Assembly: GCF_000974685.2 (NCBI RefSeq) | Contig: NZ_AP018738.1 | Span: forward strand, 1,178,001-1,242,000 | Direction: 5' to 3' | Length of the DNA: 64,000 nt | Source of the DNA: Ferriphaselus amnicola | GTDB taxonomy: Bacteria; Pseudomonadota; Gammaproteobacteria; Burkholderiales; Gallionellaceae | In this document: positions 24,012 to 42,273 of the stretch, piece after piece | Position numbering within the stretch: the first letter of the stretch is position 1 | Layout: the number at the start of each line of letters is the position of its first letter | Notes under the pieces: model-generated | Database searches by the model: none | What the model was told of the DNA's origin: nothing | The model's input: only the letters and a program-made list of their open reading frames with translations | Made by a program: the position numbers and the translations under genes

Positions 24012-24476
24012 TTAAGGGTAACTCGCTCCCACTTCGGCGCTGGCGTACCAAGCGTTCAAGGTGGCGGCATCCAGCCCAGCCGACCAAGCGGCGGTATCGC
24101 TAGCGAGAACCGGCACATAGCCGCCCTGTTTGACTTCGAAGATCACGCCGCCGCTATCCAACGACAAGACGGCATGCCAAGTGCCCGCTGGCAGTTCGAT
24201 CACGCTGGACTCTGCGCCCAGCACAGTGCGCTCGACCACGGTCTGTCCTTCAGCATCGAACACCAGCACCACGAAACGCCCACGTAAGGCGAACAGCACT
24301 TCCCAGGTGTGTGGATGGCGGTGCGGCAGTACGAGCGTGTCGGGCTCCATGGCGATGGCCAGTCTCTGAACCGGATCGCTTAACTGCTCGTGGAGATTGT
24401 GATTGGCACGTAGGCGTGGCGATTGCAGGGCTTGCAGGGCAAGCTGGTCCAAAGCTGCGTAAGTCAGTTGTTTCAA
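24012..24476 (-). CDS. WbuC-family cupin-fold metalloprotein
   Basis: 154-residue single-domain cupin with metal-binding pattern HRHPHTWEVLFALRG and a second motif ELPAGTWHAVLSL, matching the WbuC family often found near surface-polysaccharide genes; substrate unknown. The start is TTG at 24476, preceded by GAGGAG with 6-bp spacing; an upstream in-frame ATG at 24542 would place the strong ribosome site inside the gene. No neighbour explains its role. Confidence 0.82.
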   Translation of the reverse strand: MKQLTYAALDQLALQALQSPRLRANHNLHEQLSDPVQRLAIAMEPDTLVLPHRHPHTWEVLFALRGRFVVLVFDAEGQTVVERTVLGAESSVIELPAGTWHAVLSLDSGGVIFEVKQGGYVPVLASDTAAWSAGLDAATLNAWYASAEVGASYP

Positions 24477-24591: not shown

Positions 24592-24606
24592 TCTTGTCCG
24601 ACAAGA
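24592..24606. promoter_or_regulatory. Perfect palindrome upstream of sigma-54-like promoter
   Basis: TCTTGTC-C-GACAAGA, 15 bp, about 70 bp upstream of the -24 element at 24676. The position suits an activator site, but it is not the NifA TGT-N10-ACA pattern and I cannot name the regulator. Confidence 0.4.
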
Positions 24607-24675
24607 TTCAGGCATTGTCGTATTTGCTCCATGCCCTACCCCGCTGCAAGCCGCGCCGATGCTGGAGGGCTCTGC

Positions 24676-24690
24676 TGGCGCGCTTATTGC
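24676..24690 (+). promoter_or_regulatory. Sigma-54-like promoter of the SIR2/hemerythrin pair
   Basis: TGGCGC-GCTTA-TTGC keeps the invariant GG and GC at 10-bp spacing and differs from TGGCAC-N5-TTGC at one -24 base. It lies 39 bp before the start codon. Confidence 0.55.
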
Positions 24691-24729
24691 GACTAGATGG
24701 CTCATCCATCACCACGAGGAGTCATCCCA

Positions 24730-25590
24730 ATGAATAGTGCATTCGATCATATCTTTTCCGGTCTATCTGACGGGAGCGTCGTGCCTTATCTTGGCCCAGG
24801 CGCATTGAACGGGGTCATCAATCCAAGCACAGGGAAAGCCATTCCCGCCGATAGCGACAGTCTGATTCTGGCCATGAACAATGGTCAGCCGATGGCACCC
24901 AAACTGATGTATGAATTCCCGCGTGCGGCCATGAATGTAGAGTTGAAGCGCGGGCGCAATGCGGTCAACAAGTTCCTCGACGCCACCTATCGCGATACGC
25001 CTTGGAGCACTTCGGCCTTGCACGGCTGGCTGGCGCAGCAGAAGTTGCCTTATCTGATCGACGCGAATCGCGATACGCAACTGCAACAGCAATACGCTCA
25101 CACCCCGCACACGCTGATCGTCGGCGTCGCTCGCATCTCCGGCAAGGAATATCGCTTCCGCCTGTTCCACTACGATGGCACAAGCTATACCCCGATCGAG
25201 CAAGAGGCGGTGGATACTCAGCTGCCGATCTTATTCAAACCTTTGGGCACGCCGCTGCCGATCTCGAACTACATTGCCTCCGATGCCGATTTCGTGGATT
25301 ACATCACGGAGTTGATGGGCGGCTTTGCCATTCCATCCTTTGTGAAGCGTTTACGCCAAGGCAAGCGCTATGTGCTGCTCGGGCAGCGCCTCAACCGTGA
25401 CACGGATCGGATGGTTTTTTCCGACATCATCTTTGGGGCAGACACACCCGCTGGCTGGGCGCTCATCCCGCATCCAACCGATAAGGAGAAACGCTATGCG
25501 GAACGACTGAACATCGAGTTGGTGAATGCCGATGTGGCCGATTTTCTCACGGCGGCACAAGCCTGGAATGGCAGCCTGCAAGCCGCATGA
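24730..25590 (+). CDS. SIR2-like domain protein
   Basis: 286-residue protein with the SIR2_2-type start (GSVVPYLGPGAL, a Rossmann glycine loop for NAD-like ligands) and a later GKRYVLLGQRLNRDTDRM segment like the LLxGxSLxDxD part of that family. SIR2-like domains bind or hydrolyse NAD; in several defence systems they destroy it, but here the location in a nif region and the sigma-54-like promoter suggest a role tied to nitrogen fixation. The ATG at 24730 follows GAGGAG; an upstream ATG at 24697 lacks one. Its last 4 bp overlap the hemerythrin gene. Confidence 0.72.
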   Translation: MNSAFDHIFSGLSDGSVVPYLGPGALNGVINPSTGKAIPADSDSLILAMNNGQPMAPKLMYEFPRAAMNVELKRGRNAVNKFLDATYRDTPWSTSALHGWLAQQKLPYLIDANRDTQLQQQYAHTPHTLIVGVARISGKEYRFRLFHYDGTSYTPIEQEAVDTQLPILFKPLGTPLPISNYIASDADFVDYITELMGGFAIPSFVKRLRQGKRYVLLGQRLNRDTDRMVFSDIIFGADTPAGWALIPHPTDKEKRYAERLNIELVNADVADFLTAAQAWNGSLQAA

Positions 25591-26006
25591 GTAAGTTTCA
25601 TGCCGTTTGGGATGCTACGCGCCATCCTTTGGGCGTGGACGAACTCGACCATGCCCATCAGGAATTTATCGCGCAAGTGGCGGGACTTATTCAGGCCAGC
25701 GATGCCGACTTCCCGCTGCTGTTTCAAGCACTGATCCAGCACACCCGCGAGCACTTCATCGCCGAAGGCCGTTTAATGCGCGAATCCAAATATCAAGGTT
25801 TGGGCGTACATGAGGCCGAACATCATCGCGTGTTGGGCGAGTTGCAGCAGCTCAATCGCAGCATGAAGCGGGGACGGATGATGTTGGTACGCGCCTATGT
25901 ACGGGAAGGTCTGCCCGAGTGGTTCGACACCCATCTGACGATGATGGACGGAGCACTGGTCGCACATCTGAACAGGCAAGCAGCGCGCGATCCTCAGCCA
26001 ACTTGA
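25587..26006 (+). CDS. Bacteriohemerythrin
   Basis: 139-residue hemerythrin-fold protein that would bind O2 at a di-iron centre. Probable iron ligands are present: H22 or H24 in the first helix, H52-x3-H56-x3-E60, H75-x3-H79 and H116 with D121. It may buffer or sense oxygen for the oxygen-labile nitrogenase, as bacteriohemerythrins are proposed to do. Its ATG overlaps the SIR2-like gene stop, so the two are translated together. Convergent with the next gene. Confidence 0.88.
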   Translation: MSKFHAVWDATRHPLGVDELDHAHQEFIAQVAGLIQASDADFPLLFQALIQHTREHFIAEGRLMRESKYQGLGVHEAEHHRVLGELQQLNRSMKRGRMMLVRAYVREGLPEWFDTHLTMMDGALVAHLNRQAARDPQPT

Positions 26007-26017
26007 GGGCACCCGGA

Positions 26018-26347
26018 TCAGGCCTGGTAATCGGCGCTCAGTTTTACCGAGACAAACTCCGCCCGTGAGGTGGAGTTGTTTTCTTGCAGATTGAGCGCAC
26101 ACCAGTCAGCGAACTCCTGCGGCACGATATGGCATTCAAGTGCCTTCACACCAGAACGCTGAAACTCACGGCGCGCTTTGACGGCCATCGCCTTCCATTT
26201 GTCATAGGTCGGCTCAAAACACTGCGGATCGGTAGCCGTGGCTTTTACCGCCGCCCAGGTCTCTTCGGTGTACCACGTGACCCCAATAATCATGGCCTCG
26301 CTTCGTTTCTTGGCTTTCAGGCGCTGGTAGAGGGTTGGTTTTTTCAT
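26018..26347 (-). CDS. Conserved small protein of nif region, unknown function
   Basis: 109 residues, basic N-terminus (MKKPTLYQRLKAKKRSE), no signal peptide or membrane segment. Contains TWYTEETWAAVKA and several aromatic residues. I do not recognise a named family; the sequence reads as a genuine protein of balanced composition. It ends 11 bp from the convergent hemerythrin gene and lies downstream of the transporter, with which it may be co-transcribed. Confidence 0.6.
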   Translation of the reverse strand: MKKPTLYQRLKAKKRSEAMIIGVTWYTEETWAAVKATATDPQCFEPTYDKWKAMAVKARREFQRSGVKALECHIVPQEFADWCALNLQENNSTSRAEFVSVKLSADYQA

Positions 26348-28210: not shown

Positions 28211-28489
28211 TTATTCGTCGTCTTCACCTGCTACGCGACGTCGCGGCACCGAGGCAGGATCGGCGGTGATGGCTCGGTATATCTCGATTCGGTCACCCGG
28301 TTTGAGTCCGTCATCGAGTTCGGCGACTCTACCAAAAATTCCGACCGCGCAGGTCGAGATGTCGATGCCGGAGAACTTGCGCAGGATGCCGGACTGTTCA
28401 ATGGCCTGCTGCACCGTGGCATCGTCTGCCACTTCGATGCGCAACCACAGTTGCTGCGAGGGTTCGGAATATGCAACGCCTATCTGCAT
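28211..28489 (-). CDS. rnfH: RnfH family ubiquitin-like protein
   Basis: 92 residues with the ubiquitin-like beta-grasp of the RnfH family (QIGVAYSEPSQQLWLRIEV, then GIFGRVAELDDGLKPGDRIEIYR). Last gene of the rnfABCDGEH set, 8 bp after rnfE. Its biochemical role is unresolved; in diazotrophs it accompanies the electron-transport genes. The acidic C-terminus (AGEDDE) is ordinary. Confidence 0.9.
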   Translation of the reverse strand: MQIGVAYSEPSQQLWLRIEVADDATVQQAIEQSGILRKFSGIDISTCAVGIFGRVAELDDGLKPGDRIEIYRAITADPASVPRRRVAGEDDE

Positions 28490-28497
28490 GATCTCTC

Positions 28498-29175
28498 CTA
28501 ATTCGCGGTGGCTTCAGCAGCGGCCAGCTCAGCATGTGCGGCACGACGCTGATCCATCACGCGCTTTGCGGCCAGTAGCAGCCCCACGACCATGAACCCG
28601 CCGGGAGGCAGGATCATCAACAAAAAACCTTTGTAGTCAGGCAGGATGGTTGTTTCTAGGAAGGCAAATGCAGGCCCTAGTAACAGATGCGCATTGGCAA
28701 ACAGGGTGCCACTACCCAACACTTCACGCACACCACCGATCACGACCAAGGCCGCAGTGAAACCCAAACCCATCATCAAACCGTCTAACGCAGATTCAGC
28801 TACGCCTGACTTGGAGGCAAAGGCTTCGGCACGCCCGAGAATGGCGCAGTTCACCACGATCAAGGCGATGAATAGTCCAAGCACTTTGTACAACTCATGC
28901 GCCCAAGCATTCAAACCCATATCCACCAGTGTCACCAAGGTGGCGATCAGCACGATGTACACGGGGATGCGAACTTCTGTACTGACCCAATGCCGTATGG
29001 ATGAAATGATCATATTCGATAGGATCAGTACGACCATCGTCGCCAGTCCCATACCCAAACCGTTGGTCACGGTGCTGGTCACGGCCAGTGTCGGACATAA
29101 CGCCAACATCTGGACGAATACGACGTTGTTGTCCCACAGCCCATCGCGCGTGATGCGGGCGTACTTTTCATTCAT
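28498..29175 (-). CDS. rnfE: Rnf electron transport complex subunit E
   Basis: 225-residue integral membrane subunit with six predicted helices. [18 protein letters not shown] and [21 protein letters not shown] are the paired family motifs, the latter carrying the Cys thought to bind a membrane [2Fe-2S] centre together with RnfA. Contributes to ion-coupled electron transfer from NADH to ferredoxin or flavodoxin. Its start overlaps rnfG by 4 bp. Confidence 0.95.
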
Positions 29176-29792
29176 GGTCGGCCTCCTGTCTCATCCAGTA
29201 GCGCATTACGATTCTGCTCAAAGAACACCAGTCCACCTTTGACGGCCTTGACTACTGCGCGCGGCGTGATGGTCGCACCTGCGAACTGGTCGAACACGCC
29301 GCCGTCTTTCTTCACCGCCCACTTCTCGGCTGCGGGATCGGTCATCGACTTACCGTCGAAAGCGAATATCCATCGCGTTTTGGCTGGCTCGATCTTATCC
29401 CCCAGCCCCGGCGTTTCGCTGTGCTTGAGCACTCGCACCCCCAATATCTTGCCTTCGCGCGATACGCCCATCACACACACGATCGCTCCCGCATAACCAT
29501 GTCCGATCACGCGATAGACCACGGCATCGACCTTGCCAGCATGTCGGGCGCGATAGGCAGTCACCTCACCTTCCGCCGTCGGCAACACCAGCGTATCTTG
29601 GACGATGTCGTTGTCGTATTGTCCGGGCAACACGATGGCCAACGACTGCTTTAGATCGAGCGCTTCGGCGGCTCGAATGTCACCCTCGGTCGCACCTGAC
29701 GCGAATGCCAATGCCAGCGTGGTCAGCAAGGCCACACCGCCCAGCGACAATCCCTGGTAACTCAACGTACTACGTAACGCATCCCTATCCAT
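29172..29792 (-). CDS. rnfG: Rnf complex subunit G, covalent flavoprotein
   Basis: 206 residues: one N-terminal membrane helix (about 14-32) and a periplasmic FMN-binding domain. The flavinylation site is DQFAGATIT, with Thr174 aligned to the FMN-bearing Thr of characterised RnfG; Ala replaces the usual Ser/Thr before Gly. [11 protein letters not shown], another family motif, is intact. 4 bp after rnfD. Confidence 0.93.
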
Positions 29793-29796
29793 TTCG

Positions 29797-30846
29797 TTAC
29801 CCCTTGTTCACCGGCAGCGCTACGCCCTTGCTGTCGCGACCATAAATACGTGGTTTGATGTACTGATCGATCAGCGGAGTGGCCGCGTTCATCAGTAACA
29901 CGGCAAAAGCGACTCCCTCGGGGTAGCCCCCCCAAGTGCGAATGATCCAAGTCAACAGTCCACAACCGAAGCCAAAGAGGGCTTGTCCGAGCACCGTGTT
30001 GGGCGAAGTCACGGGGTCGGTGATGATGAAGAATGCCCCCAACATCAGGCCACCAGAAAGCAGATGCACCATAGGGCCAGCGTAGTGGTTGCCATCGATC
30101 AGGTTGAACAACAACGCGGGTACGGCTACGCCCAACAACATGGCGACCGGGGCATGCCAGGTGATGATGCGACGTGCGATGAGGAATAAGCCCCCCACCA
30201 GCAGCAGTAGCGCTGCCGTCTCCCCCAGACTGCCGACGCGACTTCCCCACAGGGCATCCAGCGGAGCGTAGTAACCGACCAGCGCCTGATCCAATCCGAC
30301 ACCTCGGGAGAACTCAGTCTTCACGTGACCGAGTACCGAAGCGCTGGCCATGCCATCCAGCGGCTGACTCAGGAACGTGATGCGCAGACTATCCAACCAT
30401 CCCGGTGATAGCTTTGGCACTGTCCACGTGGTCATCTCCAGCGGGAACGAGATGAGCAACATCACGCGCGCTGCCATCGCCGGATTGAACACGTTCTGCC
30501 CTAGCCCGCCAAACAGCTGCTTGCCGATGATGACCGCGAACAGGCTGCCCAGTACAGCAATCCACCAAGGTGCATAAGGCGGCAAGGATAAGGCGAGCAG
30601 CCACGCAGTCAGGATGCCGGAGCCGTCCATCAATACTGGGCGAACTTTACGTCCCTGCATACGTACGATGAGTGCTTCGCCTAGCATGGCCGCGAGCAGC
30701 GATAACGCCCATAACTCGACGGCTGGCCAACCGTACAGCCAGAAGCCGAACAGCGTGGCAGGCAAAAGTGCCAGTAAAACCGTCGCCATCACTTTGGAGA
30801 TGGATACCGGTGCATGTGCATGCGGGGAGTGAGCGATGGGGTTCAT
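29797..30846 (-). CDS. rnfD: Rnf complex subunit D
   Basis: 349-residue membrane subunit with about ten helices, related to NqrB. DGSGILTAWLLALSLPP and QNVFNPAMAARVMLLISFP are family hallmarks. The expected FMN-attachment motif (consensus S-G-A-T) reads DGMASAS at residues 164-170, so Thr is replaced by Ser and the Gly is missing. Start overlaps rnfC by 4 bp. Confidence 0.94.
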   Translation of the reverse strand: MNPIAHSPHAHAPVSISKVMATVLLALLPATLFGFWLYGWPAVELWALSLLAAMLGEALIVRMQGRKVRPVLMDGSGILTAWLLALSLPPYAPWWIAVLGSLFAVIIGKQLFGGLGQNVFNPAMAARVMLLISFPLEMTTWTVPKLSPGWLDSLRITFLSQPLDGMASASVLGHVKTEFSRGVGLDQALVGYYAPLDALWGSRVGSLGETAALLLLVGGLFLIARRIITWHAPVAMLLGVAVPALLFNLIDGNHYAGPMVHLLSGGLMLGAFFIITDPVTSPNTVLGQALFGFGCGLLTWIIRTWGGYPEGVAFAVLLMNAATPLIDQYIKPRIYGRDSKGVALPVNKG

Positions 30847-32327
30847 ACAGTCTCCTCGGCGGCTTTTGCCGCAGCTTCTTTGGCCGCTCGCTCTTTCGCC
30901 TCACGAGCCGCTTTGCGCTTCGCCGCCGCTGCGGCACGTTCGCGCTCGATGCGAGCCATACGTTCGCTGCGACCCTCAGCCAATTTCTTGGTGGCTTCTT
31001 GTTTCAGCTTGGCACGCTCCTGTGCAGCGAGGTCGCCCTTGGCGTAATTGAAGTAATGCACTAGCGGAATATGTGCGGGACAGACGTATGAACAGGAGCC
31101 GCAAGAGATGCAGTCTTTGAGACCCAGCGTCACTGCACCCGACAAGTCAGCCGCACGGATATGCGCCGCCATCTCCAGCGGTAACAGCCCTACCGGACAC
31201 GCCCGCACACAGGTCGAGCAACGTATGCACGGCGAAGCTTCCGCCTGACCGATCTCACTGGCCAACAGTGCCAACACGCCGCTCGTACCTTTTACGACAG
31301 GCACACTGGTCTGGGTGAACTGCTGCCCCATCATCGGGCCGCCTAATACTAGGCGCGCGGCAGGTTGTGTGTAGCCCTCGGCGAATTCGATCAACTCCTG
31401 CACAGGGGTGCCGATCAGCACTTCGACATTACATGCTGCTTTGATCGCGCCGCCGCTGATCGTCACGATCCGCGAAACCAAAGGCTTACCCAAGCGGATC
31501 GCCTGTTGTACGGCATAGGCCGTGGCTACGTTGTGTACCAGCACGCCGATATCAGCTGGGCGTCCGCCCGCTGGAACCTCATGCCCCGTGAGCACTTGGA
31601 TGATCTGTTTTTCCGACCCCATGGGATACATGCTCGGCATCACTGCGATCTTCACTGCACTACCCTGTGCGGCTGCTTGCATCGCGGCGATAGCTTCAGG
31701 TTTGTTGTCTTCGATGCCAACCAATACCTCTTGGGCAGCGACTGCGCTGGCGATGAGACGGATACCTTCAACGATCTCCACTGCACGTTCGCGCATGATG
31801 CGGTCGTCACACGTCAGATATGGCTCGCACTCGCCACCGTTGATGATGAGCGTTTTAACGCCGCTATTTCGGCTGAGATTGAGTTTAAGTGCCGCAGGGA
31901 ACGTCGCTCCACCCAAGCCAACGATGCCTGCAGCAGCAACACGCTCAGCGATGTCTTCGGGCGCAAGTGCAAACGGGTCTTCCACGGTTTCGATAGCGAT
32001 CCACTGGTCTGCGCCATCGCTCTCCAGCGTGATGGTTGGAACTGGTAGCCCCGAGGGATGTGGGGCGGCATGATTACCCAGTGCCAAGATCGTACCCGAA
32101 GTCGGCGCATGGACGGAGCATGAGACCGTGCCCTGCGCCGATGCGATGAGTTGACCTTTCAACACCGTATCACCCACGCTTACCAGCGGAATCGCAGGTG
32201 CACCTATGTGCTGTTGCAGCGGGATATACAGCTTCTTAGGCAAGGGCAGAGTACGGATGCTGCCCTGCACCGACATATCTTTGCGCCCTTCAGGATGAAC
32301 GCCACCGCGCAGGCCGAAAATCTTCAT
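30843..32327 (-). CDS. rnfC: Rnf complex subunit C, NADH-oxidising iron-sulfur protein
   Basis: Peripheral subunit that takes electrons from NADH. 494 residues: a barrel-sandwich start (FGLRGGVHPEGRK), an NADH/FMN-binding region (GGATFPAALKLNLS, NGGECEPYLTCDD), and two [4Fe-4S] motifs CIRCSTCVRACP and CISCGSCSYVCP. The last 60 residues are a Lys/Ala/Arg-rich helical tail, as in other long RnfC proteins. The ATG at 32327 overlaps the rnfB stop; 12 open codons upstream have no family match. Confidence 0.95.
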   Translation of the reverse strand: MKIFGLRGGVHPEGRKDMSVQGSIRTLPLPKKLYIPLQQHIGAPAIPLVSVGDTVLKGQLIASAQGTVSCSVHAPTSGTILALGNHAAPHPSGLPVPTITLESDGADQWIAIETVEDPFALAPEDIAERVAAAGIVGLGGATFPAALKLNLSRNSGVKTLIINGGECEPYLTCDDRIMRERAVEIVEGIRLIASAVAAQEVLVGIEDNKPEAIAAMQAAAQGSAVKIAVMPSMYPMGSEKQIIQVLTGHEVPAGGRPADIGVLVHNVATAYAVQQAIRLGKPLVSRIVTISGGAIKAACNVEVLIGTPVQELIEFAEGYTQPAARLVLGGPMMGQQFTQTSVPVVKGTSGVLALLASEIGQAEASPCIRCSTCVRACPVGLLPLEMAAHIRAADLSGAVTLGLKDCISCGSCSYVCPAHIPLVHYFNYAKGDLAAQERAKLKQEATKKLAEGRSERMARIERERAAAAAKRKAAREAKERAAKEAAAKAAEETV

Positions 32328-32863
32328 GCTGCCCCCCCTGTCAACGGCTTGTGCCAATACCAAGACTGCAAGGTCACCGGTATCGGTTGTAGTTTGATCG
32401 ACTCAGTAGGACAGACTTCCTCACACTTGCCGCAGGCGGTGCACGCCTCACGGAAGACCACATGGATCTGCTGAGCCGCGCCCATGATCGCATCCGTCGG
32501 ACACACCTTGAAACAACGCGTACAACCGATGCAAATCTCTTCCTTGACCTCAGCCATCATCGGCACGCTATCTTGAACGCTCGACAGATCAGCATCCACG
32601 CCTAACTTTGCCGCCAGCGCCTGTACCACTGCGCGACCACCGGGCGGGCATAAGGTAACGGGCGCGCTACCATCAGCCAAGGCCTGAGCTGCGCCGGAAC
32701 AACCGGGAAATCCACATTGGCCGCATTGCGCACCGGGCAGTAACTGTTCGATCTCGGCGATCAGCGGATTGCCTTCGACTTTCAGATAACGAGCCGCGAG
32801 CCCCAGCAACAAGCCGAGCGCAACCCCCAATGACGTCAGGCTGATAATGGCAGAAAGCAGCAT
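32324..32863 (-). CDS. rnfB: Rnf complex subunit B, multi-cluster ferredoxin
   Basis: 179 residues: an N-terminal membrane helix, a Fe-S domain with CGQCGFPGC and a later CPPGG, then two ferredoxin motifs CIGCTRCFKVCP and CTACGKCEEVCP. It passes electrons to the soluble acceptor that feeds nitrogenase. Shorter at the C-terminus than the clostridial form but normal for proteobacteria. Confidence 0.95.
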   Translation of the reverse strand: MLLSAIISLTSLGVALGLLLGLAARYLKVEGNPLIAEIEQLLPGAQCGQCGFPGCSGAAQALADGSAPVTLCPPGGRAVVQALAAKLGVDADLSSVQDSVPMMAEVKEEICIGCTRCFKVCPTDAIMGAAQQIHVVFREACTACGKCEEVCPTESIKLQPIPVTLQSWYWHKPLTGGAA

Positions 32864-32872
32864 CTCTTCCCC

Positions 32873-33454
32873 TTAATGGCCCGCCAAACCGGCGAACCCC
32901 ATGAACGCGAGTGACAGCAACCCAGCCACCACAAAACCTATCGGTGCGCCGCTGAATGTGGGCGGGACTTGTGCCAAGGCCAGCCGCATACGCAAGCCCG
33001 TGAACAACAACATCACCAACGTGAAACCGACCGCCGAGCCAAATCCGTACAGCAGACTGTGCATGAACCCATTCTTTTCCTGCACATTGAGTAGCGCGAT
33101 ACCCAACACCGCGCAATTAGTCGTGATGAGTGGCAAATAAATACCTAACACCTGATACAAACCGGGGCTGAACTTACGAATCACCATTTCGGTGAACTGC
33201 ACGACTGCCGCGATCGTGAGAATAAAGGCAAGGATGCGCAGGTATTGGATACCCAGCGGCATCAGCAGCCAATGTTCCAGCATCCAGGTCACCGCCGTGG
33301 TCAGGGTCAACACAAAGGTAGTGGCCATGCCCATCCCCAGCGCACCGTCCATCTTCTTGGATACGCCCATGAATGAGCACAGCCCCAAGAATTTGACCAG
33401 CACTACGTTGTTCACCAGTGCGGTTGAAAGTAGTAACAACAGGTATTCGCTCAT
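32873..33454 (-). CDS. rnfA: Rnf complex subunit A
   Basis: 193-residue membrane subunit paralogous to RnfE, six predicted helices, with [19 protein letters not shown] and [15 protein letters not shown]; the two Cys likely help hold a membrane Fe-S centre. Of two start ATGs (33463 and 33454) the second is chosen because AGGAG lies 8 bp before it. First gene of rnfABCDGEH, preceded by a sigma-54 type promoter. Confidence 0.95.
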
Positions 33455-33479
33455 TTCGATCATCTCCTGTCCCCTTCAT

Positions 33480-33602: not shown

Positions 33603-33618
33603 TGTAGCAAATACGACA
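33603..33618. promoter_or_regulatory. NifA upstream activator sequence
   Basis: TGT-AGCAAATACG-ACA is an exact TGT-N10-ACA match. It stands about 110 bp upstream of the rnfA -24 element, the usual distance, and 43 bp upstream of the nifL one. Confidence 0.7.
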
Positions 33619-33676: not shown

Positions 33677-33710
33677 CGACTAGACGTTGACTGCATTAAA
33701 CGTGACCGCC

Positions 33711-35285
33711 ATGTCCCAAGCACCGACAGACCACCCCTCACCCGCCGCGACGCATGACGCAGGAGGCGAAGTGCCGTCGCACCTATTCCGCCAAGCCGTG
33801 GAGCAAGCAGCGCTGGCGATCTCGATCACCGATGCACGCGCCAACATCTTGTATGCCAATGCCGCATTTGCTCGCACCACGGGCTATGGGCAGGATGAGA
33901 TCGTCGGCCACAACGAATCCATTCTCTCCTACCGCGTTACCCCTCAGTTGGTGTACGAGACACTTTGGGCGCAAATTCAGCGGCAACGGCCGTGGAATGG
34001 CCTACTGGTGAACAAGCGCAAAGACGGCAGCCGCTATCTGGCCGATGTCACCATCACGCCGGTGGTGAACGAAGATGGGCTGACTTCGCATTACCTCGGG
34101 ATGCAGCGCGATGTGACTGAAGTACACCGCCTTGAGCGACAGGTACAGAATCAAAAGACGCTGATCGAATCGGTGGTGGATTCGGCACAAGTCGCCATCG
34201 TGCTGTTGGATGATCGCGAGCATGTCGTTCTGGACAATCAGGAATACAAGAAACTGATCGGCGACCTTGGGCAAGAACCCGTCTTGCGCTTGTTGCCTGC
34301 CTTACGCACCCAAATGGGGAGTGCGTTCGATCAAGCGTATGCCAAGCATCTCAACATCGCCGCACGCGAGGTATGTATTCCTATTTCGGGACGACCTGAT
34401 CGTTGGTTCTCCTGTGCGATTTCGTGGTTCGAGGAGCAAGATGTAGGCGCAGATGCGTTTTACGAACCGATGCGGCGCCACTATATGTTGCTTACCGTTC
34501 AGGACATCACCGAACTGAAGCAGCAACAAGAGGCTCTGCGTATCAACAGCGTACGCGCGCTGCTTGCTGAGCAAGAGCGCATTCAAGGTTTACGTGAGAC
34601 CTTAGCGGGAGCGGTCTATCAACTGGAAACGCCGCTGAATATGTTGAGTACGGCCATTCATTTATTGGAGCGCCGCTTTTCGCCCACATCCTCACCTGCA
34701 GGAGCGGGCGATATAACCACCAGTACGCTGGACGAGGCTATCAAGAAGAGCCGCGAGGCCTTAGAAACGCTACGTGCCTGCATCCCCGACCATGCCGTTG
34801 CGCAGCAGCAGTTGGTCAGCCTCAATGAGATCCTGTCTGATGTACTCAAACTGGCCACGAGCAACTTGCTGGTTGCAGGCATCGTGGTCGATTGGATACC
34901 GTGCGCGCAGCCTGCCGTGGTGCTGGGACATTCTGCGCAGTTGGCTAACTTATTCAAACAATTGGTGTTCAATGCCATCGAGGCAGTGAACGAACGGCGC
35001 GGCAGTCAACGCGAATTGCGTATCACCTGCACACCATTATCTGACTATGTAGAGATATTGGTGGAAGACAGCGGCTCGGGCATTGCCGAGTCTTTGCGCT
35101 ACACCGTCTTTCAACCCTTCTTCACCACAAAAGGTGCCTCTAAACAGCATCTTGGATTAGGCTTGGCGATGGCGCAAGAAGTGGTGACTCGTCACGGTGG
35201 CACGATCGACATCGATCCCACGGTCCACATAGGTTGCCGGGTGAGAGTGCAACTTCCTCTGGCCAAGGGGGTGAGCCATGTCTAA
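33711..35285 (+). CDS. nifL: Nitrogen fixation regulatory sensor NifL
   Basis: Anti-activator that binds and inhibits NifA under oxidising or nitrogen-replete conditions. 524 residues: PAS1 at about 24-140 (flavin type, [12 protein letters not shown]), PAS2 at about 148-270, a coiled/dimerisation region, and a GHKL ATPase-like domain with N421, DSGSGI (453-458) and GLGLA (482-486). Where histidine kinases have H-E-x-x-x-P the sequence is Y-Q-L-E-T-P, so autophosphorylation is unlikely. The start ATG at 33711 is preferred over a TTG at 33687, which would lie at or just beyond the likely transcription start. Overlaps nifA by 8 bp. Confidence 0.88.
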
Positions 35286-36831
35286 CGCCCGCACAGAAGG
35301 ATGGTCAGAACTGGAGCTGGATCTGCTCCGCTCTGAACTTGAGACGCTGTATCAAGTCAGTCGGGTTCTGTCGCGCTCGCTCAACTTCAAAGAGACTCTG
35401 GACGGCGTGCTGCATGCGCTGCACGAAGGCATGGCCTTTGAGCGCGGCATGGTCAGCTTGATGGATGCCGCCAGTGGCGAGCTACAAGTGTCGCTGGTTT
35501 ATGGCGTGTCCGACACCGTCACCGAAGAGATCAGTTACCTGCCTGGCGAAGGCATCGTCGGCACCATCCTCAAAACCGGCAACAGTATTGCGGTCAAGTG
35601 CATCATGGACGAACCGCGTTTCCTGTCGCGCCTTGGCATCTATAACCCGATGGGTTCCTTCGTCGGTGTGCCGATTCGTATCGGCAAGAAAGTCGCTGGG
35701 GTACTCGCCGCTCAACCGTCGCCCAATGTGTCGAAGGTACTGAGCGAATACCAGCGCTTTCTGGAGATGGTCGCTAACCTGATCGGTCAGAGCGTGCGCC
35801 TGTCGCACGAAGTCGCACAAGAGAAGCAAGAGATCGTGGAAGAGCGCGATGTGCTCCGCCGCACCGTGCGTGGCCAGTTCGGCTTCGACAACATCATCGG
35901 CCACACCCAGCCGATGCGGCGCATCTTCGAGCAAGTGCGGCTAGTGGCGAAGTGGAACACCACCGTGTTGATACGCGGCGAGACCGGCACGGGTAAAGAG
36001 TTGATCGCCAACGCCATCCATTACAACTCACCGCGCGCACGCGGCAGTTTCGTCAAACTCAACTGTGCGGCGCTGCCCGAGACCTTGTTGGAAAGCGAAT
36101 TGTTCGGCCACGAAAAAGGCGCATTCACCGGCGCTGTGGCGCAACGCAAAGGACGTTTCGAGCAGGCCGAAGGCGGCACGGTGTTCCTCGACGAGATCGG
36201 CGAGATCTCCGCTTCGTTCCAAGCCAAGCTGTTGCGCGTGTTGCAAGAAGGCGAGCTTGAGCGCGTGGGCGGCACCAAGACCATCAAAGTCGATGTGCGC
36301 GTAGTCGCAGCGACCCACCGCGACCTCGAAGCCGAAGTCGAAAAAGGGCGCTTCCGCGAAGACTTGTACTACCGCCTCAATGTGATGCCGCTCTACCTGC
36401 CGCCGCTGCGCGAACGCATGGAAGACATCCCCGACATCGCCCGCTTTCTGGTGGAAAAACTGGGGACGCAACAAGGTCGCCCGCTCAGTCTGACCGATAC
36501 TGCGATGCGCGTACTGCTGCATCACGATTGGCCGGGCAACGTGCGGGAACTGGAGAACTGTCTGGAGCGTGCAGCGGTGATGACTGAGGGCAACACCATC
36601 GACCGCGACACCATTCTGGTCACCGGCATCGAAGAAAAGATTTCCGCCAGTCGTGGCGCGATTCAGAGTCTGGACTTGGACGACCCGAATCTGGACGAGC
36701 GTGAGAAAGTCATCGCTGCCTTGGAGCAAGCCGGTTGGGTACAAGCCAAGGCCGCGCGCCTGCTCGACATGACTCCACGCCAGATTGCCTATCGCATTCA
36801 GACGCTAAATATCAAGGTAAGGCAACTCTAG
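35278..36831 (+). CDS. nifA: Nif-specific sigma-54 activator NifA
   Basis: Enhancer-binding protein that opens sigma-54 promoters of nif genes. 517 residues: N-terminal GAF domain (about 25-170), AAA+ domain with Walker A GETGTGK (234-240), the sigma-54-contacting GAFTGA loop (281-286), Walker B VFLDEIGE (302-309) and sensor II region, then a C-terminal FIS-type helix-turn-helix (about 488-512). The linker after the AAA+ domain has no C-x4-C pair, so this is the NifL-regulated rather than the directly oxygen-sensitive type. Translationally coupled to nifL. Confidence 0.96.
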
Positions 36832-38586: not shown

Positions 38587-38639
38587 TATAGATACTGTCC
38601 TGCTCAATATTTGAGCGGGAACAAACAGGAGTGATCAAC

Positions 38640-40154
38640 GTGGCGATATTAAGCAGCATCAGGCGCTGGCATTTGCGCGACAACATGCCCATCAGAGAGA
38701 TCGTTCGAAGGACCGGACTCTCCCGCAACACCATCAGGAAGTATTTGACCAACAAAGTCGTTGAGCCCAAGTACCCCAAGCGTAAGACCCCCAGCAAGCT
38801 CGACGACTATGCCGTCAAGCTAACTGCATGGCTAAAGACCGAAGCTGGCAAAGGACGCAAACAGAAGCGTAGTCTCAAGCAACTGCACAGCGACTTGGTG
38901 CAGCTAGGCTTCACAGGCTCCTACGACCGAGTGGTTGCCTTCGCTAAACGATGGCGACAGCAACAACAAGAACAGGCGCAGACGGCGGGACGCGGCACCT
39001 TCATTCCGCTCATCTTTGCACCTGGTGAAGCCTTCCAGTTCGATTGGAGCGAAGACTGGGCCGTCATCGCGGGAGAACGCACCAAACTTCAGATTGCTCA
39101 CTTCAAACTCAGTCACAGTCGAGCCTTCTATCTGCGTGCCTATCCGTTGCAGACACACGAGATGCTGTTCGACGCACACAACCATGCCTTCGCTGTCTTC
39201 GACGGCGTGCCTGCGCGTGGCATCTACGACAACATGCGCACCGCAGTAGACAAGGTCCGACGCGGCAAACAACGCGACGTCAATATCCGCTTCTCTGCCA
39301 TGGTGAGCCACTACCTGTTCGATGCTGAATTCTGCAATCCAGCTTCCGGTTGGGAGAAAGGACAGATTGAGAAAAACGTACAAGATGCAAGGCATCGCAT
39401 CTGGAACAAACTCCCCGCGTTTGGGAGTCTGCATGAACTCAATGACTGGCTACATCAACGCTGCCTGTCGCTCTGGAAAGAACTCCCTCATCCCCTACAA
39501 TCGGAACGTCGTATCGCAGATGTCTATGCGGACGAACATCCTTGCCTGATGGCGCTGTCCTGCCCATTTGATGGATTTGTTGAACACGTCAAACGCGTGT
39601 CGCCGACTTGCTTGGTCATGTTCGAGCGTAACCGCTACAGTGTTCCGGCCTCCTATGCCAACCGCCCCATCAGCCTGAGGGTGTATGCCGACAAGCTGTT
39701 GTTCGTAGCTGAATCTCAAATCATTGCCGAGCATGTGCGGATGATTTCGAATAAGCATGCTCATGGTCAGACGATCTACGACTGGCGTCATTACCTGAGC
39801 GTGCTTCAACGCAAGCCAGGTGCATTGCGCAACGGTGCACCGTTCGCTGAACTACCCGAAGGCTTCAAGCATTTGCAGAACATCTTGCTCAAGCGACTGG
39901 GTGGAGATCGGGAGATGGTAGAAATCTTAGCCCTCGTCTTACAGCACGATGAAGCTGCCGTGCTCACAGCAGTCGAGTTGGCCCTAGAGAGCGGTGTGCC
40001 ATCCAAGCAGCATGTGCTCAATCTGCTGACGCGACTGATTGAGCCTGCACCACCAGCCCCTGTTGATACGCCGGCCCATCTGACGCTCGTGGTCGAGCCG
40101 CAGTCTAACGTTAGCCGCTATGACCAATTGAGGGAGGTGCGCCATGCAGCATGA
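38640..40154 (+). CDS. istA: IS21 transposase IstA
   Basis: 504-residue DDE transposase. N-terminal helix-turn-helix ([21 protein letters not shown]), catalytic core with FQFDWSEDW (first Asp), [10 protein letters not shown] (second Asp) and [12 protein letters not shown] (Glu), then a C-terminal IstB-contact region. Two GTG starts are in frame; the one at 38640 has AGGAG at 7-bp spacing. Overlaps istB by 11 bp. The product looks intact. Confidence 0.95.
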
Positions 40155-40920
40155 AGCCATGATCACCACGCTCAAGAGCATCAAGTTATACGGCATGGCG
40201 CAGGCGGTGGATGAACTGGCTAGCCAAGGTTCACCTGCCTATCAGAGTGCACAAGTGATGTTGAGTACCTTGCTCAAGGCCGAGATGGCGGAACGCGAGG
40301 TACGCTCTATCGCCTACCAGATGAAGGCATCCCGTTTCCCAGTCTACCGTGACTTGGCGAGTTTCGACTTCAGCCAGAGCGTGGTGAACGAGGCACTCAT
40401 CCGGCAGTTGCATCGATGCGAGTTCTTGGATCAGGCACACAATGTGGTGCTGGTCGGAGGCCCTGGCACGGGCAAGACGCATCTGGCGACGGCACTCGGT
40501 GTGCAGGCGGTGCAACATCAGCATCGTCGAGTCAGGTTCTTCTCGACCATTGAGTTGGTGAATGCGTTGGAGTTGGAGAAGGCTGCGGGCAAACAGGGGC
40601 AGATTGCTAACCGGATGATGTATGCCGATCTGGTGATTCTGGATGAGTTGGGCTATCTGCCGTTCAGCCAAGCGGGAGGTGCATTACTGTTCCACTTCAT
40701 TGGCAAACTCTATGAGCGCACGAGTCTTGTGATCACGACCAACTTAAGCTTCGCTGAATGGGGCTGTGTGTTCGGGGATGCAAAGATGACAACGGCGTTG
40801 CTCGACAGGTTGACGCACCACTGCCACATCGTGGAGTCCGGCAACGACAGTTACCGCTTCAGAAACAGTTCAACTCAATCGGGAAAGGAGGGCAAAAACA
40901 GAAAACTATCCACAACTTGA
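40144..40920 (+). CDS. istB: IS21 helper ATPase IstB
   Basis: 258-residue AAA+ protein that directs IstA to target DNA. Walker [13 protein letters not shown], Walker [15 protein letters not shown] and sensor motif TTNLSFAEW are present. The last residues run into the right end repeats region. Intact, so the element may be mobile. Confidence 0.95.
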
Positions 40921-41379: not shown

Positions 41380-42273
41380 ATGATTGCCACCGACCATGCC
41401 GTCGCCGCCTATCTCGGCCTCGCCATCGGTGATGCGCTGGGTTCGACCGTGGAGTTCATGACCCCGCGCGAGATCGTGGCGAAATATCAAGTGCATGACC
41501 AGCTGATCGGCGGCGGCTGGTTACATCTTAAACCGGGACAAGTCACCGACGACACCACGATGGCGCTGGCTTTGGGCGAGTCTATCCTCAAACAGGGCAA
41601 GGTCGATGCGCTAGCGGCGGCGCAGGCGTTCGACGGATGGATGCGCGCCAAGCCCGTGGACATCGGCAACACTGTGCGGCGCAACCTGCTGCAATTTCGC
41701 AAGACGGGAAACCCAGCAGCGCCCTACTCCGACCATGACGCAGGCAACGGTGCTGCGATGCGCCTGCTGCCCGTGGCACTGGCCACTCTCGGCCAGCCAG
41801 AGGAGTCCGTGCGCGCTGCCAGCCGCGCCCAAGCCCACGTCACTCACCACTGCGCGCTGTCTGATGCAGCCTGCGAGTGTCTGGTGATGATGGTGCAGGA
41901 TGCACTGCGCGGTGCGAGCAAAAATGAATTACTGCACCGGCACGCCCACCCGCTCGCCGCTCGCCATCCCGAATTCAAATTCCGCGCCGTGCGCCAGCAA
42001 AGCAACCCCAGCGGCTACGTCGCCGACACGATGCAAGCCGTATTCCAGAGTTTCTTCGACACGGATGATTTCAGAGGATGCCTGATCGACGTGGTCAATC
42101 GAGGTGGCGATGCAGACACCACCGGTGCCATCGCTGGGATGCTGGCAGGCGCGTTGTACGGACTGGAGGCGATACCGAAGGTCTGGCTCGGTGCACTGGA
42201 TGACAATATCCTGCGCGCTTGCGAAGCCCAAACGCACGCGCTACTGGAAGCTTCCAACACATTCTTAAGCTGA
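41380..42273 (+). CDS. draG: ADP-ribosyl-[dinitrogen reductase] hydrolase
   Basis: Removes ADP-ribose from the Arg of nitrogenase reductase, switching nitrogenase back on when ammonium falls. 297 residues with the di-manganese ligand motifs GDALGSTVEF, TDDTTMA, and NRGGDADTTGAIAG. Lies 7 bp after the nifQ remnant. The partner transferase gene draT, usually nearby, is not in the window. Members of this fold also act on other ADP-ribosylated targets, but the nif setting favours DraG. Confidence 0.88.
   Translation: MIATDHAVAAYLGLAIGDALGSTVEFMTPREIVAKYQVHDQLIGGGWLHLKPGQVTDDTTMALALGESILKQGKVDALAAAQAFDGWMRAKPVDIGNTVRRNLLQFRKTGNPAAPYSDHDAGNGAAMRLLPVALATLGQPEESVRAASRAQAHVTHHCALSDAACECLVMMVQDALRGASKNELLHRHAHPLAARHPEFKFRAVRQQSNPSGYVADTMQAVFQSFFDTDDFRGCLIDVVNRGGDADTTGAIAGMLAGALYGLEAIPKVWLGALDDNILRACEAQTHALLEASNTFLS

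What the first reader, a model, noticed from the sequence alone, without database searches (positions are those of the whole stretch)
24592..26006. Sigma-54-linked SIR2-like/bacteriohemerythrin pair beside the nif region
A SIR2-like NAD-binding protein and a di-iron O2-binding protein are translationally coupled and preceded by a -24/-12 element and, 70 bp upstream, a perfect 15-bp palindrome TCTTGTCCGACAAGA. The pairing of an oxygen binder with a possible NAD consumer or sensor suggests an oxygen- or redox-protection module for nitrogenase; I know no described system with this makeup.
Basis: partly seen in the sequence, partly recalled or inferred. Interest (0 to 1): 0.6.

Follow-up and report, generated by a model that had tools for sequence, protein, structure and literature searches.

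The report
Nitrogenase-linked, catalytically worn SIR2 protein
A gene of unknown function that travels with nitrogen-fixation genes encodes a SIR2-shaped protein that seems to have lost a key catalytic residue, and in iron-oxidising bacteria it is paired with an oxygen-binding hemerythrin.

Summary
The pair is real. 24730-25590 encodes a 286-aa SIR2-fold protein (model pLDDT 90.5; best matches KomC, ThsA, DSR2). It overlaps by ATGA a hemerythrin-domain gene (25587-26006) with all seven di-iron ligands. A conserved -24/-12 element precedes it (89 of 90 close homologues), with a NifA-type site upstream. The 15-bp palindrome is not special: the window holds four such palindromes, and 3 of 36 relatives keep it. 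It lies on a conserved GACA block.

Of 300 genomes of the order, 47 have the gene, 47 have nifD, 46 both. None of 45 nifD-negative genomes tested elsewhere in the class has it. A SIR2 protein of the Rhodobacter capsulatus nif cluster is not found in a nifA mutant (PMC6925177).

The hemerythrin is lineage-specific: adjacent in 44 of 46 nearest relatives, 6 of 56 at 50-67% identity, 0 of 40 in the distant subfamily.

NAD consumption is not supported: the catalytic His is absent in 141 of 145 sequences; the distant subfamily also lost the Asn. Best reading: a NifA-driven nitrogenase accessory pseudo-enzyme, probably sensor or adaptor, with an added O2 buffer here. Listed as "SIR2 family protein" in nif clusters already; I found no reported function.

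The parts
24592..24606 (.). perfect 15-bp palindrome TCTTGTCCGACAAGA; covers a conserved GACA block, possibly an upstream NifA half-site (inference)
   Evidence: word occurs once in the window; palindrome kept in 4 of 37 regions (window included); GACA kept in 37 of 37
24616..24631 (+). NifA-type upstream activator site TGTCGTATTTGCTCCA (TGT-N10-ACA with one mismatch)
   Evidence: 15 of 16 bases equal to the perfect site between rnfA and nifL; TGTCG at this place in 37 of 37; strict TGT-N10-ACA in 41 of 51 other close-type homologues
24676..24691 (+). sigma-54 -24/-12 element TGGCGCGCTTATTGCG
24716..24721 (+). ribosome-binding site GAGGAG, 8 bases before the ATG
   Evidence: sequence
24730..25590 (+). 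nif-linked SIR2-fold protein, 286 aa (P0001), Leu172 at the place of the catalytic His
25587..26006 (+). hemerythrin-domain protein, 139 aa (P0002), ligands H24 H56 E60 H75 H79 H116 D121, overlapping the SIR2 stop by ATGA
28211..33463 (-). rnfABCDGEH, electron supply to nitrogenase (context)
   Evidence: RnfB and RnfD by NCBIfam, RnfH by Pfam, the rest by eye
33603..33618 (.). perfect NifA-type site between rnfA and nifL (TGTCGTATTTGCTACA on the minus strand), context
33687..35285 (+). nifL (context)
   Evidence: TIGR02938 592 bits, cut-off 242
35278..36831 (+). nifA (context)
   Evidence: TIGR01817 678 bits, cut-off 529
41380..42273 (+). draG, ADP-ribosyl-[dinitrogen reductase] hydrolase (context)
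   Evidence: TIGR02662 409 bits, cut-off 337

Best explanation
P0001 is a nitrogenase accessory protein: a stand-alone SIR2 domain, switched on by NifA and sigma-54 together with the nif genes, that has lost the SIR2 catalytic histidine and therefore most likely no longer splits NAD. It most likely works without catalysis, as a sensor or adaptor that uses the old NAD/ADP-ribose pocket and a newly conserved set of motifs (KPxG, SDxDxV, TE, IP) at a step shared by many diazotrophs, such as maturation or regulation of the nitrogenase proteins. Two versions exist, which do not occur together in any of the 47 genomes of the order that have one: one beside draT/nifH or rnf (here and in gammaproteobacteria), one behind nifT (rhizobia, Paraburkholderia, Methylococcus). 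In Gallionellaceae and Thiobacillus-like relatives a hemerythrin was added behind it, probably as a local O2 buffer. Shown: fold (by prediction), motif loss (by alignment), nif co-occurrence, promoter conservation, gene order. Inferred: loss of NADase activity, the sensor/adaptor role, the O2-buffer role.
For: Co-occurrence: order, 47 SIR2+, 47 nifD+, 46 both, of 300 (Fisher p 5e-52, not corrected for kinship); class, 26 of 31 nifD+ and 0 of 45 nifD-; phylum, all 13 strong new hits lie in genomes with nif genes. Gene order: divergent from nifH, in part behind draT, or behind nifT. Promoter: 89 of 90; NifA-type sites. Expression: R. capsulatus Rcc03262 present in wild type, NF in the nifA double mutant (PMC6925177); Zymomonas ZMO1821 up under N2 fixation (PMC8600466); neither was compared with P0001 by sequence. 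Fold: Z up to 19.3 to SIR2 NADases. Motif loss: ThsA YKMHG or YKLHG aligns with YKPLG, NYD with WYD; His in 4 of 145, Asn in 104 of 104 close and 0 of 41 distant.
Against: No activity, ligand or partner was tested. The active-site Asn is invariant in the close subfamily, and two Marinobacterium, one Mesorhizobium and one Bradyrhizobium member have His at position 172, so some activity may survive. The stretches that align the His motif score weakly, and the KomC alignment places that His differently. The gene is not general to nitrogenase: G132 in the order, 5 of 31 nifD+ genomes in the class and 13 genomes among 66 without the gene checked in the wider set have nifD without it.
Confidence: 0.5

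Rival explanations
1. Active sirtuin-type deacylase or NADase acting on nif proteins or NAD (the deacetylase reading proposed for Zymomonas ZMO1821).
For: SIR2 fold, closest to NADases; N113 and D115 invariant in 104 of 104 close members; acetylated NifA, NifH and NifK reported in Zymomonas (PMC8600466, passages).
Against: Catalytic His absent in 141 of 145 sequences; Asn replaced by Trp in 40 of 41 distant members. The placement rests on weakly scoring stretches in 3 of 4 ThsA chains; the KomC alignment ends in a doubtful stretch and puts the His elsewhere, but on no conserved His either.
Confidence: 0.12
2. Oxygen- or redox-protection module for nitrogenase: hemerythrin carries O2 and the SIR2 partner senses NAD(H).
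For: ATGA-overlapping genes; hemerythrin adjacent in 44 of 46 nearest relatives; the seven di-iron ligands conserved in 57 aligned sequences; a hemerythrin gene is also named in the legend of the nif cluster of a diatom symbiont (PMC11208148).
Against: Hemerythrin adjacent in 6 of 56 (50-67% identity) and 0 of 40 (distant subfamily), so the SIR2 job does not need it; the genome has four other hemerythrin-domain genes over cut-off.
Confidence: 0.2
3. Partner of DraT/DraG: binds NAD or ADP-ribosylated NifH and tunes the ammonium/energy switch-off of nitrogenase.
For: draT within 1.4 kb upstream on the same strand in 26 of 94 distinct close-type loci with enough flank (8 of 42 and 18 of 52); all 12 close-type genomes of the order have draT.
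Against: 14 of 47 SIR2+ genomes of the order have no DRAT match, and no draT or draG is in the held stretches of the methanotroph loci; Zymomonas has a nif SIR2 gene but no draT/draG identified (PMC8594446).
Confidence: 0.15
4. Maturation factor for NifDK or FeMo-cofactor acting with NifT and NifZ.
For: Distant subfamily sits directly behind nifT in Rhizobium etli, Mesorhizobium and Bradyrhizobium, with two genes between in Paraburkholderia and four in Methylococcus; R. capsulatus operon nifB1-rcc03265-nifZT-rcc03262 (PMC6925177).
Against: The close subfamily is beside nifH/draT or rnf instead; no biochemical data.
Confidence: 0.25

Closest known systems
Nif-cluster 'SIR2 family protein' (Rcc03262, ZMO1821, PST_1325, Rhizobium etli p42d RHE_RS30545)
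   Same: Same name and nif position; the R. etli protein was found by sequence and shares the distant-type motifs; Rcc03262 is NifA-dependent (PMC6925177)
   Different: P0001 is of the other subfamily (24-31% identity), sits beside rnf/nifLA and has a hemerythrin behind it; Rcc03262, ZMO1821 and PST_1325 were not compared by sequence here
SIR2 NADase effectors of anti-phage defence (ThsA, KomC, DSR2)
   Same: Same fold over nearly the whole protein (Z up to 19.3), weak sequence match (ThsA-type chain 7xut/7uxt at 7.3e-7 for the distant subfamily)
   Different: Catalytic His lost; stand-alone domain; nif promoter and context; no PADLOC model matches P0001
Sirtuin deacylases (CobB type)
   Same: Same superfamily fold (Z about 13)
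   Different: No catalytic His; nearer in fold score to the NADase branch
Bacteriohemerythrin
   Same: Hemerythrin domain models over cut-off and seven ligands
   Different: Below the NCBIfam bacteriohemerythrin cut-off; behind a NifA-type promoter and overlapping the SIR2 gene

Membership tests
SIR2 superfamily (fold) | SIR2 Rossmann-type fold | tested here: met
   pLDDT 90.5; Z 19.3 to KomBC and ThsA chains over 243 residues, rmsd 3.1-3.2
SIR2 superfamily (fold) | Pfam SIR2_2 gathering score in P0001 itself | tested here: not met
   16.4 of 24.5 bits; relatives reach 2.1e-24
Catalytic SIR2 enzymes (NADase/deacylase) | catalytic His in the xHG motif | tested here: not met
   Leu172 in P0001; His in 4 of 145 sequences; the placing alignment scores weakly
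Catalytic SIR2 enzymes (NADase/deacylase) | active-site Asn (NYD motif; role recalled from ThsA N112) | tested here: met
   N113 in 104 of 104 close members; but Trp in 40 of 41 distant members
Catalytic SIR2 enzymes (NADase/deacylase) | NAD hydrolysis or deacylation | not testable with these tools
   needs protein
Hemerythrin-domain proteins | model over cut-off and seven ligands H, HxxxE, HxxxH, HxxxxD (pattern recalled) | tested here: met
Bacteriohemerythrin (NCBIfam NF033749) | curated cut-off 84 bits | tested here: not met
   61.5 bits
NifA/sigma-54 regulon | -24/-12 element | tested here: met
NifA/sigma-54 regulon | TGT-N10-ACA upstream site (consensus recalled) | tested here: inconclusive
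   one mismatch in the window, left half conserved in 37 of 37; perfect in 41 of 51 other close-type homologues
NifA/sigma-54 regulon | expression lost without NifA or RpoN in this organism | not testable with these tools
   reported for Rcc03262 in an R. capsulatus nifA mutant (PMC6925177)
Known anti-phage SIR2 systems | PADLOC model match | tested here: not met
   none for P0001 or L047; ThsA at E 0.0026 for one distant member

The most novel reading that the evidence does not exclude
A general nitrogenase accessory factor hidden under a misleading label: a SIR2 pseudo-enzyme that reads NAD(H) or ADP-ribose (or shields nitrogenase by assembling, as its NADase cousins form helical assemblies) and gates nitrogenase to the cell's redox state, in two interchangeable versions across Proteobacteria, one of which has recruited its own oxygen carrier.
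Probability: 0.3. Interest if true: 0.8.

Novelty: new variant of a known kind. Interest (0 to 1): 0.57.

Why it matters
Nif clusters have been dissected for decades, and engineering nitrogen fixation into other hosts depends on knowing the accessory genes. In this order the gene is almost as tightly tied to nifD as a nif gene can be, a homologue-by-name is under NifA control, and it is labelled a SIR2 protein and guessed to be a deacetylase although its catalytic site looks broken. A simple deletion in a cultured diazotroph would say whether an accessory factor has been overlooked. For SIR2 biology it would be a pseudo-enzyme branch, next to the NADase effectors, with a metabolic role.

Tried and rejected
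Perfect palindrome as a separate operator: rejected (four such in the window; kept in 4 of 37 regions, window included). DraT partner as the general role: weakened (14 of 47 SIR2+ genomes without DRAT). Anti-phage effector: no PADLOC match for P0001 and nif context. Strict NifA site in the window: none near 24.6 kb; the degenerate site was found only by comparing relatives. Solved-structure search with the close-subfamily profile alone: no hit; the mixed and distant profiles gave hits. Literature: SIR2 + nif + hemerythrin (whole words), no paper; hemerythrin + nitrogen fixation + 'oxygen protection', none; 'SIR2 family protein' + 'nif gene cluster', none. Listed papers that I did not open: those, PMC3188489, PMC4578398, PMC11227200, and three. 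Rows dropped before counting: G053 (17.8 bits, not found by the profile) and G756 (E 8e-4, no nifD match) not counted as SIR2+; weak nifD matches (18 in the order; 6 in the class, G519 among them) not counted as nifD+. Counted as nifD+ below the cut-off: G030 and G201 (pieces) and G537 (two pieces). Duplicate loci were merged (160 to 144), but the counts for promoters hold a few duplicates. Held flanks are often only 1.5 kb, so counts within 1.4 kb are lower bounds. The phylum control was not a random draw: all 14 new hits plus 66 genomes chosen by handle number; one search confirmed that the profile finds nothing in those 66.

Full report
What is there. Window 24730-25590 (+) encodes a 286-residue protein (P0001) and 25587-26006 (+) a 139-residue hemerythrin-domain protein (P0002); stop and start overlap as ATGA. 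The window is G000:C1:1178001-1242000 of a single-contig 2.72-Mb genome; the best matches of the gene in named contigs are Gallionellaceae and Nitrosomonadales MAGs. Downstream lie rnfHEGDCBA (minus strand), nifL and nifA, and at 41.4 kb draG. nifH and nifD are at about 995 kb, nifH divergent from draT, and nifE is at 1.43 Mb.

Promoter. The -24/-12 element TGGCGCGCTTATTGCG (24676-24691) has one mismatch to the pattern used. Of 90 close-type homologues with at least 120 bases upstream, 89 have a GG-N10-GC element scoring at least 5 of 8 within 40-180 bases of the start; Markov shuffles give 7.7 on average, 15 at most; the exception is L079. Of 18 distant-type homologues 2 have one, 1.5 expected, in keeping with their place inside operons. 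In 37 distinct upstream regions of the nearest type (77% identity or more, window included) TGTCG stands 59-61 bases before the element in all 37, and GACA 75-78 bases before it in all 37 (CGACA in 32). In the window the first block reads TGTCGTATTTGCTCCA (24616-24631), 15 of 16 bases equal to the perfect NifA-type site TGTCGTATTTGCTACA between rnfA and nifL. Of 51 other close-type homologues, 41 have a strict TGT-N10-ACA site 20-130 bases before the element, 1.2 expected. The NifA consensus itself is recalled.

Nif co-occurrence. In 300 genomes of the order (own genome included), P0001 has matches at E<=0.001 in 48; one (G053, 17.8 bits) is not found by the family profile, leaving 47. nifD (TIGR01282) is over its cut-off in 45 genomes; two more (G030, G201) hold nifD pieces; 18 weaker matches were not counted. 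46 genomes have both. Exceptions: G132 has nifD but not the gene, also by profile; G135 has the gene but no nifD, on a contig that also carries a NifA-like activator below the NifA cut-off (475 vs 529 bits). Within the own family four relatives have both and four have neither. Fisher p is 5e-52 without correction for kinship. In the class, 369 genomes were searched for nifD. Of these, 77 were searched with the profile: the 31 others counted as nifD+, one with a nifD piece (G519), and 45 of 336 nifD-negative ones. The gene is in 26 of 31, not in G519, and in 0 of 45. In the phylum 17 of 329 genomes match; three were known, G756 is marginal (E 8e-4, no nifD), and of the other 13, 11 have nifD over cut-off and two (G721, G888) only NifE-level matches. 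Of 66 genomes without the gene, 13 have nifD over cut-off. So the gene is nearly confined to diazotrophs but many diazotrophs outside the order lack it.

Two subfamilies. In the order 12 genomes have the close type and 35 a type at 26-31% identity; none shows both. After merging duplicates the set has 104 close (window included) and 41 distant sequences. The close type is divergent from an upstream nifH in 56 of 108 loci before merging (held stretches often end before nifH), has draT within 1.4 kb upstream in 26 of 94 distinct loci, or lies by rnf/nifLA. On named plasmids the distant type sits directly behind nifT in Rhizobium etli CFN 42 p42d, Mesorhizobium sp. AR02 and Bradyrhizobium sp. BWA-3-5, with two genes between in Paraburkholderia aromaticivorans and four in Methylococcus sp. 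EFPC2.

Hemerythrin. Adjacent downstream (within 300 bases) in 44 of 46 distinct loci at 68% identity or more, in 6 of 56 at 50-67% (13 of 56 within 1.4 kb) and in 0 of 40 below 50%. Residues H24, H56, E60, H75, H79, H116 and D121 are conserved in at least 97% of the letters of 57 aligned sequences. The genome has five hemerythrin-domain genes over the TIGR02481 cut-off, P0002 scoring lowest.

Fold and active site. AlphaFold2 on 54 sequences gives pLDDT 90.5 and pTM 0.90. VIA-align 2 on Foldseek's matches places it with SIR2 NADases: KomBC chain Z 19.3 (rmsd 3.1, 243 residues), ThsA 19.3 (3.2, 243), DSR2 18.6 (3.5, 243), sirtuins about 13 (3.4, about 200). The distant-type profile finds four ThsA-type chains at 7.3e-7 to 4e-4; in three of them YKMHG or YKLHG aligns with YKPLG, in weakly scoring stretches, and NYD with WYD. 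The mixed profile finds KomC at 5e-4, TTNYD against DxNRD, but its alignment ends doubtfully before KPxG. Across 145 sequences position 172 is His in four only (two Marinobacterium, one Mesorhizobium, one Bradyrhizobium). N113 is invariant in 104 close members and Trp in 40 of 41 distant ones, while D115, P171, G173, D185, D187, G218 and R227 are invariant. Strong conservation around a broken catalytic site argues for a retained, different function rather than decay (inference). That the His and Asn are catalytic is recalled, in keeping with the H171A and H146N entries.

Literature. PMC6925177 (passages): Rcc03262, 'SIR2 family protein', 7.3 and 6.6 fmol in wild type and NF in the nifA double mutant; [quoted passage not shown] PMC8600466 and PMC8594446 (passages): ZMO1821 in the Zymomonas nif cluster, more abundant under N2 fixation, guessed to be a deacetylase; no draT/draG identified there. 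PMC9412634 (figure legend): a SIR2-like protein in the Rhodovulum nif operon. PMC11332353 (table passage): PST_1325 'SIR2 family protein', next to nifH in locus-tag order, in P. stutzeri. PMC11208148 (legend): hemerythrin among the gene labels of a symbiont nif cluster. I saw no report of a tested function in searches; most subscription papers are not held.

Verdict. The deeper finding is the SIR2 component: a nitrogenase-linked SIR2 protein with a degenerate catalytic site, widespread and unexplained. The hemerythrin is a local addition. NAD consumption is unlikely; a non-catalytic sensor or adaptor role is the best guess and is untested.

Noticed in passing
window 38631-40920 and L114 14101-16390: The same two-gene IS21-type element (507 and 258 aa, same first 90 residues) lies beside draG and near nifEN; nif genes of this genome are spread over at least three places.
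   Followed up: no
G000:C1:989335-989469: A 46-residue remnant matching the end of DRAT lies about 4 kb from the intact draT; G251 shows a weaker one, below the cut-off.
   Followed up: no
L065, L080 (Marinobacterium), L145 (Mesorhizobium), L146 (Bradyrhizobium): These four members alone of 145 have His at the position of the lost catalytic His, in both subfamilies; possible remnant or regained activity.
   Followed up: partly
L167 (G135:C60): Distant-type SIR2 gene in a genome without nifD match, 4 kb from a NifA-like activator; perhaps a recent loss of nif or an incomplete assembly.
   Followed up: partly
window 26018-26347 (-): 109-aa protein without Pfam match, conserved in the same place between hemerythrin and rnfH in L007 (72%) and L024 (69%).
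   Followed up: no
window 24012-24467 (-): WbuC-family cupin, divergent from the SIR2 gene; no match among the ORFs of the relatives' held loci L002-L110.
   Followed up: no
Zymomonas, Rhodovulum and other nif clusters in print: NCBI-style name 'SIR2 family protein' invites a deacetylase reading (as in PMC8600466) that the motif loss does not support.
   Followed up: partly
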